Source of the DNA: an uncultured Erysipelotrichaceae bacterium
GTDB taxonomy: Bacteria; Bacillota_I; Bacilli_A; RF39; UBA660
DNA length: 43,340 nucleotides
Assembly: GCA_902778125.1 (NCBI GenBank)
Contig: CACYWH010000015.1
Location: forward strand, 1-43,340
Direction: 5' to 3'
Shown here one piece after another: positions 12,513-18,898 of this stretch. Numbering within the stretch: position 1 is the stretch's first letter; the number at the start of each line of letters is the position of its first letter. The notes beneath the pieces were generated by a model. The model saw only the letters and a list, made by a program, of their open reading frames with translations. It made no database searches and was not told the origin of the DNA. Made by a program: the position numbers and the translations under genes.

Positions 12513-13271
12513 TTATATTTTACTAATTAATTTGGCATGTAATACTACTCTTTTAGTACCTCTAGCTGTACAAGAAGATAGTGTTAATATCTGAGCAGTA
12601 TCATTTAAATCTGTATCATAATTATAAATTGATCTTGACTTAAGTATACTTATAAATTCATTATATTCATCATCACTATTGAAATCAGTTTTAATATAAT
12701 AGTTTTCTGGTTTTATTGAGTATGTAGAAAACACTTTGTAAATGTATGTTCCAGATTCAGTAACTAATACTATTTTATGATTATCTTCATTTGAGTACCA
12801 TTCCTCATTTAATATATTTTTTAAAGTTCCAAACATACTACCATTTTGCATATTGTGACCATATATTACTAGATTCTTATCTTGATTATCATATTTATTA
12901 TGATAATCAGCAAATACCCATCCAGCAATATTATATTTTTTTTCAAAATTATGATGTAGATAATAGTCATTATCTTTCCCCTTAACTACTATATAATCTA
13001 TATCAGTACCATTAACCTTTAAATATGCAATTGTATCAGAATTTTGCTCTTTTAGTTTTTTAAAATCTATATTATATTTTTCTTCTAATGATTCATTTTT
13101 ATTTTCTTCTTTGACTTTATCTTTATTTTCATCTATTATTAACTTTTTTGCTTTTTCTTGAATCATTTCATTTTCATCATTGTCAATTTTCCAAGTAATA
13201 ATTTTAAATAACGAAAAAACAATACCAAATAAGAATATAAAAATAATTATTATTTTTAATTTATTGTTCAT
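12513..13271 (-). CDS. srtB: Class B sortase
   Basis: Cysteine transpeptidase that anchors surface proteins to peptidoglycan. The 252 residues have an N-terminal membrane anchor (about 5-25), a Lys/Glu-rich spacer and a sortase domain with His139 (YGHNM), Cys234 (TLSSC) and Arg241 (GTKRVV). The order NSDTIAYLKVNGTDIDYIVV then NIAGWVFADY is typical of class B. It lies just after an adhesin whose C-terminus carries NPQT, the class B type sorting motif, so it is probably its dedicated enzyme. The ATG follows AGGGGAA. Confidence 0.93.
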   Translation of the reverse strand: MNNKLKIIIIFIFLFGIVFSLFKIITWKIDNDENEMIQEKAKKLIIDENKDKVKEENKNESLEEKYNIDFKKLKEQNSDTIAYLKVNGTDIDYIVVKGKDNDYYLHHNFEKKYNIAGWVFADYHNKYDNQDKNLVIYGHNMQNGSMFGTLKNILNEEWYSNEDNHKIVLVTESGTYIYKVFSTYSIKPENYYIKTDFNSDDEYNEFISILKSRSIYNYDTDLNDTAQILTLSSCTARGTKRVVLHAKLISKI

Positions 13272-13299
13272 ACTTTTCCCCTAATCCTTTTATATACAG

Positions 13300-13326
13300 A
13301 AAAAGCTTATAGTTATAAACTATAAG
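13300..13326 (-). terminator. Terminator or attenuator between adhesin and sortase
   Basis: Minus-strand stem CTTATAGT/ACTATAAG with a 5-base loop, followed by CTTTTT. It overlaps the adhesin stop codon and would lower sortase expression relative to the adhesin unless read through. Confidence 0.65.
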
Positions 13327-15368
13327 TTATTATTTTTTATTAATGAATAAGAAGATTTAATAAGTCCTAACAAGCATATGATTAATAACATTATATAACT
13401 CATAACATTATCTACAGTTTGAGGATTATCAGTTGGTGGTTCATCGTTTCCACCTTGTCCAAAATGTGTATTAATTACAGTAAATCCGATTTCCATATCT
13501 CCAGTGATTTGAGTATCATATTCTGAAACTTCAATCTCATTAATAGTATATTCTATTTTTTTACCTTTATTATATACATCTAAATTTTCGAATTTGTGAT
13601 TCCAATTGTTTTCTTCATTTAATTCTACAGTTTCATATAATTCTCCATCAGCATATAAATTAACTGTAACGCTATTTGGTCTTAATTCATTATAGTCTTC
13701 TTTATCTTCCCATATTTTTACTACTGGAATATCTCTCTTTTCTGTACTATAATCATTCTTCATTGTAATTTCTTTAGCTTTAGGTGTAACATCTTCTAAA
13801 TATCCTGTAATTCCTAATAAGTTTTGATATTTTTCACCATCTTCAGCAGTATTTAAAGCATTATATATATAAATGTGCATATCATCTGGATGGACTAAAC
13901 TATTAGAAACTTCATCTCCTAGTAAGAAGTAGAAGAAATCTGCATAAATAGGATGATCTACAGATAAATTATTAGTTCCATGCAATGAATTTTTTTGTGT
14001 CCAGTGTCTTGCAAAGTTTCCAAAAGCATCACCTTGACCAATAATAGTTCTAAATCCATTTGGACTTTCAGGATCATATTTATAATCTTTATACATGTGC
14101 ATTAGATACCAATAATAGTTTCCTTCTTTAACGTATATAGCTTCATCTCCACTTTGTATACTATCCCATCTTTGAATTTGTGTTACTCCAGCATTTGTAT
14201 ATGTTTTTAATGCCATTTCAGTTATAAAACTTATAGCTTCATCAGGAAGAGCTTCTGTATCAGAAAATTTGTCTTGACTTCTTGCAAGAGTACGACGATA
14301 AATTATATTTAATAAAGTGTCATATAGTTCTTGATTAGATAATGACGTATCAGATACATCTATTGGTTCATCTGTTAAATGACCATGATTATAAATAGCT
14401 CCTTCTCCCCCAGGATTATATTCTGGATCCTTATAAACTATTTGTTGTGTATAATTTCTTATTGTTTCCGGTGTCAATATACTTCCATTATAGTTTGCAT
14501 CCGGTCCTGGTTCAGTTAAGAATTGATTTATACAATATACTTCATGTTTTTCACCTTTAATTTCAACATAATAAGTTGTTGCTGTCTCACAAGGTATATT
14601 TGGATTTAATGTATTCGCTGCATAACCAACTTCAATTTCTACTGTAATAGTAAATTCTATATCCTCAGCTAAATCATATCCCTCTGGCGCTTCTACTTCA
14701 TGTAAAGTATAATTTCCCTCAGGTAATAAAGTTTTTCTTGGGTTTTCATCTGAAATCCATTCATCTACGATATTATTATCTGAATCTAATATTTGAAGCT
14801 TAGCTCCTGATAACATATTACCATCAGTGTCAGTTTTCTTTGTTATAACTTCAACTTTTTGTACTTTATTTTGTACATTATCATTATTATTTGTTGTATC
14901 AGGAACTTCTTTATTGTCAGGTACAGTTTTGTCTTCGTCCTTTGAATTTGCACCTAGTGTATTATCATTAGAATTGTCATTATTATCAGGTGTAGTTTCT
15001 TTTCCACCTTCAGGAACTATATCTAATGTATTATCTTTAGGATCATCATTATTATCAGGTGTAATACTTTCTCCATTTCCTGAAACTATATCTGATGTAG
15101 TATTATTGTTGTTATTTTCTTCACTATTAGCATCAGTTTGTTCTTTAGAAGTTTCAAATGTATTTTCATCATTAGTTTCTAATACATTTTCATTTTCTTT
15201 TTCAAAGACATCTGAATCTTCTTCTTTTATTAATTCATCTTTTGTAGGTAGTGTATCTACCATTTCAATATTATTTTGATTTTCATTTTCTTCTGCATAT
15301 ATTTCACAAATATTTAGAAACATAAAACTTAAAACAATAAAAATCAAAAATTTAATGCTCTTTTTCAT
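13320..15368 (-). CDS. Cell-wall anchored thioester-domain adhesin
   Basis: A 682-residue surface protein. In order: signal peptide (1-25), an acidic Asn/Asp/Glu-rich stalk with imperfect repeats of TPDNND...DNTL (about 26-165), a SpaA/Cna-B-like domain (about 168-245), a thioester domain with Cys279 in VYCIN and Gln397 in TQIQRW, a second Cna-B domain (about 540-635, KIWEDKED start, VINTH end), then NPQT at 648-651, a hydrophobic helix and a short tail. Thioester domains of this type bind host surfaces covalently in Gram-positive pathogens and commensals. The NPQT motif and the adjacent class B sortase fit anchoring by that enzyme. Its own promoter lies upstream. Domain assignment is by motif and pattern. 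Confidence 0.88.
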   Translation of the reverse strand: MKKSIKFLIFIVLSFMFLNICEIYAEENENQNNIEMVDTLPTKDELIKEEDSDVFEKENENVLETNDENTFETSKEQTDANSEENNNNNTTSDIVSGNGESITPDNNDDPKDNTLDIVPEGGKETTPDNNDNSNDNTLGANSKDEDKTVPDNKEVPDTTNNNDNVQNKVQKVEVITKKTDTDGNMLSGAKLQILDSDNNIVDEWISDENPRKTLLPEGNYTLHEVEAPEGYDLAEDIEFTITVEIEVGYAANTLNPNIPCETATTYYVEIKGEKHEVYCINQFLTEPGPDANYNGSILTPETIRNYTQQIVYKDPEYNPGGEGAIYNHGHLTDEPIDVSDTSLSNQELYDTLLNIIYRRTLARSQDKFSDTEALPDEAISFITEMALKTYTNAGVTQIQRWDSIQSGDEAIYVKEGNYYWYLMHMYKDYKYDPESPNGFRTIIGQGDAFGNFARHWTQKNSLHGTNNLSVDHPIYADFFYFLLGDEVSNSLVHPDDMHIYIYNALNTAEDGEKYQNLLGITGYLEDVTPKAKEITMKNDYSTEKRDIPVVKIWEDKEDYNELRPNSVTVNLYADGELYETVELNEENNWNHKFENLDVYNKGKKIEYTINEIEVSEYDTQITGDMEIGFTVINTHFGQGGNDEPPTDNPQTVDNVMSYIMLLIICLLGLIKSSYSLIKNNNL

Positions 15369-15430: not shown

Positions 15431-15480
15431 TAATTATAATTCATATTAATATATTCAAAAAATGAATTATTTATACTAAT

Positions 15481-15511
15481 AAAATAGTTAGCAATGAATG
15501 CTAACTATTTT
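15481..15511. terminator. Terminator after the bacteriocin peptides
   Basis: Perfect 13-bp inverted repeat AAAATAGTTAGCA/TGCTAACTATTTT with a 5-base loop. Stem and left flank match the terminator at 12479. It lies four bases past the second peptide stop. Confidence 0.87.
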
Positions 15512-15514
15512 ATA

Positions 15515-15697
15515 TTAACAATAACTTCCATCAGTATGTCTTCTAAGAGCACTTCCTAAAGACCTACCTATTTCTAGTGCAAATCCTATTGCTCTTACGA
15601 TACCATTTATTACTGTTCCAGAAATTCCTCCACCTTTTACTTCACAAAGTTCTATATCTGTCATATTATCTACATTTAACTGGATTAGTATATCCAT
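15515..15697 (-). CDS. Double-glycine bacteriocin precursor, second peptide
   Basis: A 60-residue precursor starting at ATG 15697 (a TTG lies one codon upstream). The leader ends NMTDIELCEVKGG, a classic double-glycine leader of 23 residues cut by C39 peptidases. The mature part is 37 residues, begins GISGTVING, is Gly/Ala-rich and helical, has a GxxxG motif in GRSLGSALRR, and ends in DGSYC. This fits one half of a class IIb two-peptide bacteriocin. It overlaps the first peptide gene by 32 bases and comes last in the operon after the exporter. Confidence 0.82.
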   Translation of the reverse strand: MDILIQLNVDNMTDIELCEVKGGGISGTVINGIVRAIGFALEIGRSLGSALRRHTDGSYC

Positions 15698-15797
15698 CAA
15701 ATATACCTATTAGAAAAGCCGCTATTGCGCCACCTATTCCAACAGCAATCCAGTTAACACCTCCTTTCACGCTCAATAATTCTTGTTTCTCTAACAT
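15666..15797 (-). CDS. Double-glycine bacteriocin precursor, first peptide
   Basis: A 43-residue precursor with the short leader MLEKQELLSVKGG, then a 30-residue mature peptide that begins VNWIAVGIGGAIAAFLIG and ends in a Pro-Val-Lys-Cys-Arg tail. It is hydrophobic and Gly/Ala-rich with GxxxG-type spacing, as in membrane-active class IIb peptides. AAAGGAG stands seven bases before the ATG, which overlaps the exporter stop by seven bases, so translation is coupled. Leader, hydrophobic helix, spacing and neighbours all agree. Confidence 0.85.
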   Translation of the reverse strand: MLEKQELLSVKGGVNWIAVGIGGAIAAFLIGIFDGYTNPVKCR

Positions 15798-17803
15798 ATA
15801 TTCTCCTTTCTTATTTCATATTTTTCATTAAACAAATCAATAATTTCTTTTTTATGAGAAATATATATGATTGTTTTATATACTTCTGATAATGCTTCAT
15901 CAAGAATAATATAATTACTCTTTTTGAGCAAACTTCTTGCAAGCATTATTTTTTGTCTTTCACCACCTGATATATTAAATCCATTATCCTCAATAATAAA
16001 ATTATCTCTAAATTTACTATTGTTTCTAAGTTTATCTAAATTGCATAAGTGTATTATTCTTTCATAATCATCATCTCTTATGTTTCTGAAATAAATTATA
16101 TTGTTTTTCAATGTATCATTATTAATATAGCTATTTTGTGAAACATAAGTAAAACTATTTAATATGATATTTTTATTTATGTCTTTTAAATTAATATTAT
16201 TTATAAATATATCTCCATCATATTCTTCATAATATTTTAAAAGTATTTTTAAAATTGTACTCTTACCAAAACCACTTCCACCATATATTAAAAACTTACT
16301 CCCATATTTAATATCTATATTTATATTATTAAATAATTTATCAATACCATTATAACTATAAGATAAATCTTCGATTTTAATATCTCCTTTTATTGTTTTA
16401 TCTGTCTCATCATATGTTTTACATTTATATATTAATAAATCATTTATTCTTCTATAAATGTTTTTAAGATGATTATATTTAGGTTCAAAATCTAAAATAT
16501 CTTTAAGAGGCTCAGTAAAATAGTAAACTATTGAATTAAATAAAATAAATTCACCAATAGTAATTAAATTATTATGTATAAAGATAGCACTAATAAAAAT
16601 TGAGATAATATAAGTAGTATTGACAATTATTTCTTTAATAAAACTTTGATTATTTAAAGAAGTTGAATAATTACTAATATTAAAAGAATTACTAATATTT
16701 TTAACATCTAATTCTCTTAATACTTCCTTAGTAACATTTATATTCATATTGCTTTCATATGAATATATACTTTCACTTAAACACTTATTGTATTTAGCAT
16801 CACTAACTAACATTTCTTCACTTTGAATCATATATTTTTTCTTATACAATAATACAACAAAAAAGTATAAGACCATTTCAAAAAAATAAAGAAGAAATAA
16901 TTTAGTATTTATAAATAACAGAATAATTATACTTAAAATAACTAGAATTATATCAGTAGAAATATTAACAATTAAATTTGAAACTATTTCTTTGAAAGAT
17001 TTTAAATCATTTATACGATTTAATACTTCAGAAGTTGATTTACTCTTGAAAAATTGATATGGAAGATTAAATAGTTTTCTAGTAACTACATTTATAAATT
17101 TAATAGAAACATCATTCATAATTCTAATAAGATTTTTTCCTCTTATCAAAGTTAAAATATTTTTTATAAATGTTGATGTTAAAAACAAACAACTAACAAT
17201 CAATAAATAACTAATGTTAAAATTGGGAATTATATAATCAATTACTATCATAGAAAAATAATTAATACTTATACCAATTATAAGAATAATTAATGAAAAA
17301 ATAACTAATTTAATAATATTAGTTTTTTCTTCTTTTATTATTGGAAATAAGTAATTATAAATGTTCTCGTTTGATAAATCATTATATACACATTTAACTG
17401 GATAAATAAATATTGATGTACCTAGATATATTTTTTCGAATTCTTCTTTTGAAATGTTTTTCCTATATGAAGATGGATCCATAATATATATTTTGTCTTT
17501 AATAACTTTATATACAACGATAAAATGAAACATATTATCTTTCAATACATGACAAATTATTGGGAAAGAAATTTTTTTATTAAAAATATCATTTACAGAT
17601 AAATGCATTCCATATCCATCAAATCCATATAATCTAGAACCATTAATTATGTTAAATGCATTAGTTCCATCTCTATCAGTTTTTAAAGCATATGTAATTT
17701 CTTCATGTGAGGCCTCACATCCATAATACTTCATTATAGATAATAAACATGAAGGACCACAATCTTTAAAACCGTTTTGTCTAACATAGTATTTATTACT
17801 CAT
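15791..17803 (-). CDS. C39 peptidase-containing bacteriocin ABC exporter, ATPase domain shortened
   Basis: Cuts double-glycine leaders and exports the mature peptide. The 670 residues hold an N-terminal C39 peptidase with Gln9, Cys15 (DCGPSC), His93 and Asp109; six membrane segments (about 155-430); and an ABC ATPase with Walker A GGSGFGKST, signature SGGERQK and Walker B YIILDE. Between the Walker B Glu and the switch His there are only 14 residues (ALSEVYKTIIYISH) where relatives have about 29-31. The D-loop Asp and following helix are missing. The reading frame is intact, so this looks like an in-frame deletion that could disable transport. No accessory protein or immunity gene is adjacent. 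BlpA/LagD/ComA relatives are about 715 residues. Confidence 0.9.
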   Translation of the reverse strand: MSNKYYVRQNGFKDCGPSCLLSIMKYYGCEASHEEITYALKTDRDGTNAFNIINGSRLYGFDGYGMHLSVNDIFNKKISFPIICHVLKDNMFHFIVVYKVIKDKIYIMDPSSYRKNISKEEFEKIYLGTSIFIYPVKCVYNDLSNENIYNYLFPIIKEEKTNIIKLVIFSLIILIIGISINYFSMIVIDYIIPNFNISYLLIVSCLFLTSTFIKNILTLIRGKNLIRIMNDVSIKFINVVTRKLFNLPYQFFKSKSTSEVLNRINDLKSFKEIVSNLIVNISTDIILVILSIIILLFINTKLFLLYFFEMVLYFFVVLLYKKKYMIQSEEMLVSDAKYNKCLSESIYSYESNMNINVTKEVLRELDVKNISNSFNISNYSTSLNNQSFIKEIIVNTTYIISIFISAIFIHNNLITIGEFILFNSIVYYFTEPLKDILDFEPKYNHLKNIYRRINDLLIYKCKTYDETDKTIKGDIKIEDLSYSYNGIDKLFNNINIDIKYGSKFLIYGGSGFGKSTILKILLKYYEEYDGDIFINNINLKDINKNIILNSFTYVSQNSYINNDTLKNNIIYFRNIRDDDYERIIHLCNLDKLRNNSKFRDNFIIEDNGFNISGGERQKIMLARSLLKKSNYIILDEALSEVYKTIIYISHKKEIIDLFNEKYEIRKENIC

Positions 17804-17875: not shown

Positions 17876-18253
17876 TTATTTCATAACAACATCATTATTT
17901 GTACCTGTTAATTCACTAGCTTTTTCTTCGCCAAACATTAATTTAGCAATTTCTACATAATTATTATAGTTTTCTTCTTCACTTTTACTTCCATATGTTG
18001 CATCAATATAAGGATTATAATATAAAACATCTCCATCTTGAAGTCTTATTCCTATAATAGCACTTTCTTTAGTTATATAGTAATACTCTTTTCCACTAAT
18101 TGAGACACTATTATCTGTTACATTATCAAGTATTCCATAATATTCTTCTCTATTACCTTTATCGCATATAACTAATAAAACATCTCTATTTTTATTCTTA
18201 TATAGATCTTTTAATAAGTATTCTGCATGTAATTTTCTTTCATTATCTTCCAT
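17876..18253 (-). CDS. Unknown 125-residue protein
   Basis: Not recognised. It is a soluble protein with a charged N-terminal helix, then a beta-rich middle (DVLLVICDKGNREEYYGIL, SVSISGKEYYYITKESAIIG, IRLQDGDVLYYNPYI) and an acidic C-terminal helix. The middle resembles a small Sm-like or SH3-like barrel, but this is only an impression. It is the last gene of the rlmN-prpC-prkC-rsgA-rpe operon, nine bases after rpe. Confidence 0.85.
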   Translation of the reverse strand: MEDNERKLHAEYLLKDLYKNKNRDVLLVICDKGNREEYYGILDNVTDNSVSISGKEYYYITKESAIIGIRLQDGDVLYYNPYIDATYGSKSEEENYNNYVEIAKLMFGEEKASELTGTNNDVVMK

Positions 18254-18262
18254 ATTACCTCT

Positions 18263-18898
18263 TTATATATTTTTTAAAACATTTATATTATTAGTAATAT
18301 CTTTATGAATATATGATGCTGATACTAACATATCAACTCCAGCTTCTTTACATAAAAGACCAGTTTCATCATTTATACCACCATCTACAGATATTATAGT
18401 TTTTACATCTTGCTTTATTATTTCATCTTTTAACATTTTAATTCTATCAGGAGTATTATCTATAAATGGTTGTCCGCTTGATCCAGGAAAAACACTCATA
18501 ACTAATACAATATCAATATCTTTTAAATATGGATAAACTACACTCACATCTGTATCAGGATTTATAGCAATTCCAACTTTTAAGCCATAGCCTTTTATGT
18601 AATTTATCATTTCATTAACATCTTTTACTGCTTCATAATGAAATATAATATCATTTGTATTTAACAATGCATAATCCTCAATATATTTTTTAGGATTATC
18701 TACCATTAAATGTACATCTAATGGTAATTGTGAATAACTTGTTATTTTCTTTATTTCAGAAATTGTCCAAGTCTTATTTTCTACAAATTTTCCATCCATA
18801 ATATCTATATGAATATAATTAGCATTTGTTTTGTCTAGTTTTTTAACTATATCTTGGGGTTTAATACTACTAGATAATATTGAAACACTTACTTTCAT
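18263..18898 (-). CDS. rpe: Ribulose-phosphate 3-epimerase
   Basis: Interconverts ribulose 5-phosphate and xylulose 5-phosphate in the pentose phosphate pathway. The 211-residue TIM barrel shows IHIDIMDGKFVEN, DVHLMV, VLVMSVFPGSSGQPF and SVDGGIN, all standard. Its ATG overlaps the rsgA stop as ATGA. The order rsgA-rpe is the Bacillus order. Confidence 0.96.
   Translation of the reverse strand: MKVSVSILSSSIKPQDIVKKLDKTNANYIHIDIMDGKFVENKTWTISEIKKITSYSQLPLDVHLMVDNPKKYIEDYALLNTNDIIFHYEAVKDVNEMINYIKGYGLKVGIAINPDTDVSVVYPYLKDIDIVLVMSVFPGSSGQPFIDNTPDRIKMLKDEIIKQDVKTIISVDGGINDETGLLCKEAGVDMLVSASYIHKDITNNINVLKNI

What the first reader, a model, noticed from the sequence alone, without database searches (positions are those of the whole stretch)
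15515..17803. Two-peptide-type bacteriocin locus with very short, overlapping precursor genes
Two double-glycine precursors (43 and 60 residues) follow a C39 exporter, and all three genes overlap. Both mature parts are Gly/Ala-rich, helix-forming and contain GxxxG-type spacing, as in class IIb bacteriocins. The 43-residue gene starts inside the exporter stop. I cannot match either mature sequence to a known bacteriocin, and the setting appears to be a compact commensal-type Bacilli genome.
Basis: partly seen in the sequence, partly recalled or inferred. Interest (0 to 1): 0.75.

Follow-up and report, generated by a model that had tools for sequence, protein, structure and literature searches.

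The report
Clade-wide secreted two-peptide bacteriocin-like locus
Two tiny secreted peptides and their dedicated exporter look like a two-part antibacterial toxin, but unlike ordinary toxins of this kind they are present once in almost every species of one large family of small-genome bacteria and apparently nowhere else in their class, and about half of the other genera also carry a membrane protein that copies one of the peptides and may neutralise the pair.

Summary
On the - strand a C39 peptidase/ABC exporter (15791..17803) is followed by two double-glycine precursors: A (15666..15797, 43 aa) and B. B most likely starts at ATG 15664, one base after A's stop (49 aa, 12-aa leader), so it is not 60 aa and does not overlap A. 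A passes the NCBIfam class IIb model TIGR03949 narrowly; B matches no family. The surprise is the distribution. B is found in 223 of 243 genomes of the window's family (162 of 171 good ones; housekeeping control GatB 166 of 171), nearly always once, and in none of 341 sampled genomes of other families in the class. Exporter and ParC trees agree, rpsU lies just downstream in most genera, dN/dS is below 1, and exporter and peptides disappear together. Mature peptides keep one GxxxG and almost always a C-terminal cysteine. In about half of the other genera a leaderless one-helix protein, C, overlaps the end of B and mimics B's C-terminal half, suggesting decoy immunity. The window's genus lacks C, and the window's exporter has a 17-residue deletion. 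Best reading: a class IIb-like membrane-active heterodimer that became a core trait of one bacterial family. Activity is untested.

The parts
15791..17803 (-). C39 peptidase/ABC exporter (PCAT), 670 aa; dedicated exporter of the locus. Catalytic Cys and His-Asp region, Walker A and signature present; 17 residues missing between D-loop and H-loop (junction near 15880/15881) compared with 28 of 28 relatives
   Evidence: Pfam PF03412, PF00664, PF00005; nearest solved structures ComA and PCAT1; alignment of 29 orthologues
15666..15797 (-). Precursor A, 43 aa: leader MLEKQELLSVKGG (15759..15797) and mature VNWIAVGIGGAIAAFLIGIFDGYTNPVKCR (15669..15758)
   Evidence: TIGR03949 22.8 bits; family profile A2
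15803..15809 (-). Ribosome-binding site AAAGGAG of A, inside the exporter's last codons
   Evidence: sequence
15515..15664 (-). Precursor B, 49 aa: leader MTDIELCEVKGG (15629..15664) and mature GISGTVINGIVRAIGFALEIGRSLGSALRRHTDGSYC (15518..15628); start 1 nt after A's stop (probable translational coupling)
   Evidence: profile A1
15479..15513 (-). Strong hairpin (15-bp stem) directly after B's stop; candidate operon end, although the T-tract is weak and the strict terminator scan did not call it

Best explanation
The locus makes and secretes a pair of short membrane-active peptides that work like a class IIb (two-peptide) bacteriocin. The C39 domain of the exporter cuts A and B after the double glycine and the ABC part exports them (inferred from homology). 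Outside or at the membrane, each mature peptide forms one long helix; the invariant GxxxG of A (IGxxDG) packs against that of B (GRxxG); and the C-terminal cysteines may lock the pair by a disulfide (inferred). The pair would insert into membranes of neighbouring, probably related, cells and permeabilise them (inferred). In about half of the genera outside the window's own, a leaderless one-helix protein (C), whose end copies that of B, would bind A in the producer's membrane in place of B and so give immunity (inferred). The locus is inherited vertically as a near-universal, single-copy gene set of one bacterial family (shown). In the window's genus C is absent, so protection there must come from elsewhere. 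In this particular genome the exporter carries a 17-residue deletion and may not work.
For: Two adjacent GG precursors behind a C39-ABC exporter, with A's leader in class II form. B profile in 223/243 family genomes, 162/171 good ones; GatB control 233/243 and 166/171 (difference not significant, P = 0.41). 0 of 341 other-family genomes of the class have more than a leader-type match (phylum draw, agrees). A is likewise restricted. A C39 exporter in 20/20 genomes with B, within 1.8-2.6 kb of B in the 17 whose coordinates were listed, against 4/20 genomes without B (P = 1.5e-7). Exporter and ParC trees share 14 of 26 splits (random maximum 3) and distances correlate at r = 0.89. rpsU within 1.5 kb downstream in 37 of 51 non-genus loci. 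dN/dS below 1 in every computable pair, about 0.0-0.4. GxxxG in all 71 distinct mature B; the matching motif in 72 of 73 A; a cysteine near the end in 71/71 B and 71/73 A. C resembles B's end (hhalign 93.6%, E 2e-7, score 34; 200 column shuffles reach at most 14) and not A. Small one-helix immunity proteins exist: CbnZ, 42 aa (PMC6957408).
Against: No activity data. Core-gene distribution and conserved mature sequences are unlike typical bacteriocins: about 24% of 213 lactobacillus-complex strains carried any complete operon in one survey (PMC5471241). No immunity gene in the window's genus, and C was found in only about half of the other genera. The window's own exporter may be broken. B matches no bacteriocin family above cut-off.
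Confidence: 0.58

Rival explanations
1. The pair is not a weapon. A core secreted heterodimer serves a house-keeping or communication role in this family (cell-to-cell signal, envelope or membrane organisation), and C is a membrane partner or receptor-like subunit rather than an immunity protein.
For: Single copy, near-universal, family-restricted, vertically inherited, syntenic next to rpsU/yqeY, mature parts conserved across scores of genera; no C in the window's genus although the peptides are kept; closest solved exporter structure is ComA, which exports a signal peptide.
Against: A, where it matches anything, matches class IIb and lactococcin G-beta models; paired peptides with GxxxG and a small overlapping membrane gene are the class IIb layout; about 5% of good genomes lack the locus, so it is not strictly essential. 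Sensor kinases nearby were not searched for systematically.
Confidence: 0.28
2. A and B act as two separate single-peptide bacteriocins or pheromones that only share an exporter.
For: A and B are alike only in their leaders.
Against: A lies just upstream of B in 68 of 71 loci, with one GxxxG and usually one terminal Cys each; they are restricted to and lost from the same genomes.
Confidence: 0.08
3. The window's copy is decaying: the exporter is inactivated by the 17-residue deletion, and A and B are no longer exported in this strain. (Compatible with the main explanation; it concerns this genome only.)
For: In-frame gap in the ATPase domain between D-loop and H-loop, absent from all 28 aligned relatives.
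Against: Frame intact; A and B against the nearest relative have dN/dS about 0.13-0.17; could be an assembly error.
Confidence: 0.25

Closest known systems
Class IIb two-peptide bacteriocins (lactococcin G, plantaricin EF/JK, carnobacteriocin XY)
   Same: Two adjacent double-glycine precursors, C39-ABC exporter, short helical Gly-rich cores with GxxxG, and in many relatives a small membrane gene directly behind the second peptide
   Different: Family-wide core distribution; very short leaders (12-13 aa in the window); almost invariant C-terminal cysteine in both peptides; the candidate immunity protein copies peptide B; no immunity gene in the window's genus; activity unknown
NCBIfam TIGR03949, class IIb bacteriocin, lactobin A/cerein 7B family
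   Same: A scores 22.8 bits (cut-off 21.5); 23 of 30 A homologues match at E <= 0.05
   Different: The match covers A residues 2-36, mostly leader and the glycine-rich stretch, and ends before the C-terminal NPVKCR part; B does not match above cut-off
CbnZ, immunity protein of carnobacteriocin XY (PMC6957408)
   Same: Very small, one transmembrane helix, encoded in the bacteriocin operon; C of the relatives is 44-70 aa with one hydrophobic stretch
   Different: C has sequence similarity to peptide B, which is not described for CbnZ in the passages read; C is untested
ComA/PCAT1 peptidase-containing ABC exporters
   Same: Same domain order over the whole length
   Different: In most non-genus loci read, the exporter is followed by a 118-152 aa one-helix protein (X) of no known family, absent in the window's genus

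Membership tests
Class IIb (two-peptide) bacteriocin | Two adjacent precursors with double-glycine leaders | tested here: met
Class IIb (two-peptide) bacteriocin | Dedicated C39 peptidase/ABC exporter | tested here: met
   but the window's copy has a 17-residue gap
Class IIb (two-peptide) bacteriocin | GxxxG or GxxxG-like motif in each core peptide | tested here: met
   A GIFDG, B GRSLG; motif in 72/73 A and 71/71 B distinct mature sequences
Class IIb (two-peptide) bacteriocin | Peptides become membrane helices | tested here: inconclusive
   Single-sequence AlphaFold2 helices, mean pLDDT 77 and 81; no membrane test
Class IIb (two-peptide) bacteriocin | Both peptides needed together for killing | not testable with these tools
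   needs synthetic peptides and indicator strains
Class IIb (two-peptide) bacteriocin | Cognate immunity gene in the operon | tested here: not met
   Not met in the window's genus (C in 0 of 15 loci; no C in 18 genomes). In other genera a B-like membrane gene follows B in at least 25 of 56 loci
TIGR03949 lactobin A/cerein 7B family | Score above the curated cut-off | tested here: inconclusive
   A 22.8 against 21.5, barely above; B no match
PF10439 Bacteriocin_IIc | Score above the gathering cut-off | tested here: not met
   No match for window A or B; 5 of 29 B and 18 of 30 A homologues match weakly
ComC/BlpC-type signal peptides | Cognate sensor kinase and regulator encoded nearby | not tested
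   flanking genes were clustered and the neighbours read, but not scanned systematically for kinases

The most novel reading that the evidence does not exclude
A two-peptide, possibly disulfide-linked secreted heterodimer of bacteriocin ancestry has become a core gene product of a whole bacterial family and is controlled in many genera by a leaderless membrane copy of one of its own peptides. Either it is a family-wide weapon with decoy immunity, or a peptide toxin turned into a house-keeping factor.
Probability: 0.4. Interest if true: 0.85.

Novelty: new variant of a known kind. Interest (0 to 1): 0.7.

Why it matters
Bacteriocins are usually treated as accessory, patchy, fast-changing genes. 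A two-peptide pair about as widespread in a family as a housekeeping gene challenges that picture and suggests a role tied to the lifestyle of these reduced-genome bacteria. How two-peptide immunity proteins work is stated to be unknown (PMC6957408, PMC8538875). The B-like protein C offers a simple testable answer: a decoy of one peptide that captures the other. The paired terminal cysteines make a second clean prediction, a covalent heterodimer.

Tried and rejected
1) 60-aa B: rejected, because ATG 15664 follows A's stop by 1 nt and relatives use the equivalent start. 2) Chance ORFs: rejected by recurrence and dN/dS. 3) Mobile or phage origin: no match for B on plasmids, phages or viral contigs (the phage and viral searches used a relative's B, and close relatives' records may be left out). 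5) AlaS and GatB as species markers: dropped for the tree because AlaS falls into two divergent groups within the genus and GatB varies widely, with two copies in some genomes; ParC used instead. 6) X as a known accessory protein: no convincing Pfam match. 7) B profile against PDB: nothing significant. 8) Immunity gene hidden elsewhere in the genus: C profile finds only B itself or weak hits. 11) Consensus terminator scan found none, although the hairpin is strong.

Full report
What is there. On the minus strand of the window, between rpe (18263..18898) with a small unknown gene (17876..18253) upstream and a surface-protein/sortase pair (12513..15368) downstream, lies a compact three-gene unit: a 670-aa C39 peptidase/ABC exporter and two short double-glycine precursors, A and B. 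A (43 aa) begins 7 nt before the end of the exporter behind AAAGGAG. B is best read from ATG 15664, one base after A's TAA, as a 49-aa precursor with leader MTDIELCEVKGG. The 60-aa reading of the first stage has no good ribosome-binding site and is not what the orthologues show: in the nearest relative, G012, B starts at the equivalent ATG (MTDNELIEIKGG) just after A's stop. Directly after B's stop comes a 15-bp hairpin (66-nt stretch -20.1 kcal/mol; z = -5.7), so nothing else seems to belong to the transcript, although a consensus terminator scan did not call it.

Conservation. The exporter has full-length orthologues in most of the 17 sampled relatives of the genus and in more distant form across the family. 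Reading downstream of these exporters gave A and B in nearly every case. Alignments show A as [leader]GG...fxIGxxDGYxRPLxC and B as [leader]GG..SgTxxNAxxRAxxxxLELGRSLGSAIRRx..xC. A and B resemble each other only in the leader.

Distribution. A profile of B finds 223 of 243 genomes drawn from the window's family, 141 of 148 genera, 162 of 171 good-quality genomes, almost always one copy. The same 243 genomes searched with GatB as a control give 233 of 243 and 166 of 171 (difference in the good genomes not significant, P = 0.41). In a class-wide draw of 395 genomes every match covering the whole peptide is in this family; the 341 other genomes give only four leader-type matches, all in one Mycoplasma-like family. 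A phylum draw says the same. A is restricted likewise, with six marginal outside matches. Of the 20 family genomes without B, 19 also lack A. Twenty of 20 tested B-bearing genomes have a C39 exporter, on the same contig 1.8-2.6 kb from B in the 17 for which coordinates were listed, against 4 of 20 B-less ones (P = 1.5e-7). Three of those four C39 frames are short (380-458 aa), as expected if the contig ends there. Exporter and peptides are therefore one unit.

Inheritance and selection. Trees of the exporter and of ParC from 29 genomes share 14 of 26 internal splits (random relabelling: mean 0.23, maximum 3 in 2000), and pairwise distances correlate at r = 0.89 (0 of 2000 permutations reach it). 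Outside the window's genus, rpsU lies within 1.5 kb downstream of B in 37 of 51 loci with enough flank. dN/dS of the mature parts is below 1 in every computable comparison of close species (about 0.0-0.4; one dS was saturated). This is vertical inheritance under purifying selection. [quoted passage not shown]

Anatomy of the mature peptides. All 71 distinct mature B contain GxxxG and a cysteine within the last four residues. Of 73 distinct mature A, 72 have the matching glycine motif and 71 have a cysteine near the end; the two without it are a truncated copy in G032 and the copy in G280, which has no B match. GxxxG motifs are the helix-packing signature of class IIb peptides (PMC8538875). If the two helices pack in parallel through these motifs, the two cysteines come to the same side; a disulfide-linked heterodimer is my inference, not shown.

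The third and fourth genes in relatives. In most non-genus loci read, the exporter is followed by X (118-152 aa, one N-terminal hydrophobic helix, no convincing Pfam match). In at least 25 of 56 non-genus loci (22 of 47 genera; three more were seen by eye in L047, L051 and L054), B is overlapped by a few bases by C, a 44-70 aa protein with one hydrophobic stretch and no GG leader. C's end, LGxxxGTxxRxxxxxxxC, matches B's end by profile comparison (probability 93.6%, E 2e-7, score 34; 200 column-shuffled controls reach at most 14) and not A. The place of C is that of a class IIb immunity gene, and one-helix immunity proteins as small as 42 aa are known (CbnZ, PMC6957408), yet how such proteins protect is described as a mystery in that paper. 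A membrane-anchored copy of B that captures A is the simplest reading; it is inferred. Caveat: the rows of the C alignment were chosen by position behind B and by eye for the shared motif, so the profile score is somewhat favoured.

The window's own case. The window's genus has neither X nor C, and no C-like gene elsewhere in 18 genomes. Producers in this genus must be protected otherwise or be insensitive. In addition, the window's exporter lacks 17 residues between the D-loop and the H-loop that all 28 aligned relatives have; it may be inactive in this genome, or the gap may be an assembly error.

Judgement. It works like a class IIb bacteriocin on anatomy. Membership is not established, because activity and two-peptide dependence could not be tested and an immunity gene is absent in this genus. 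What is new is the combination of core-gene distribution, near-invariant paired terminal cysteines and a B-like candidate immunity protein. I give 0.58 to the membrane-active class IIb-like reading and 0.28 to a core non-weapon role. The taxon is unnamed; the class behaves as Bacilli, since it holds 0.7-1.3 Mb single-contig, Mycoplasma-like genomes.

Noticed in passing
window 15866..15890: In-frame loss of 17 residues in the exporter's ATPase domain (LDEALSEV|YKTIIYISHK) compared with 28 of 28 relatives; real deletion or assembly error.
   Followed up: partly
window 12513..15368: Class B sortase and a 682-aa surface protein with SpaA and Cna_B domains lie between B and yqfC in the window; in the relatives G012 and G017 yqfC follows B directly.
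   Followed up: partly
window 17876..18253: 125-aa gene upstream of the exporter with no Pfam or NCBIfam match; other genus members have a different ~70-aa gene (cluster c16) or large repeat-type proteins (cluster c12) near that place.
   Followed up: no
L047, L049, L051, L053, L057, L058, L059 and others, directly after B: Small leaderless membrane protein C whose C-terminal half resembles peptide B.
   Followed up: yes
L046, L047, L049, L051, L053-L058, L061, L063, between exporter and A: Protein X of 118-152 aa with one N-terminal helix and no known family; possibly an exporter accessory protein.
   Followed up: partly
G039:C1:578344, G417:C5:1470, G659:C6:4531 and other genomes of family f4: Leader-type matches of the A and B profiles to 76-139 aa frames in small Mycoplasma-like genomes: candidate GG-leader peptides there.
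   Followed up: no
L046 (G032) and L125 (G280): The only two A copies without the terminal cysteine; in G032 A is truncated and B lies on another contig (G032:C5:49928), and G280 has no B match.
   Followed up: no
L034, L040, L042, L043, L044: A pair of further ABC transporter genes lies downstream of B in several genus members.
   Followed up: no
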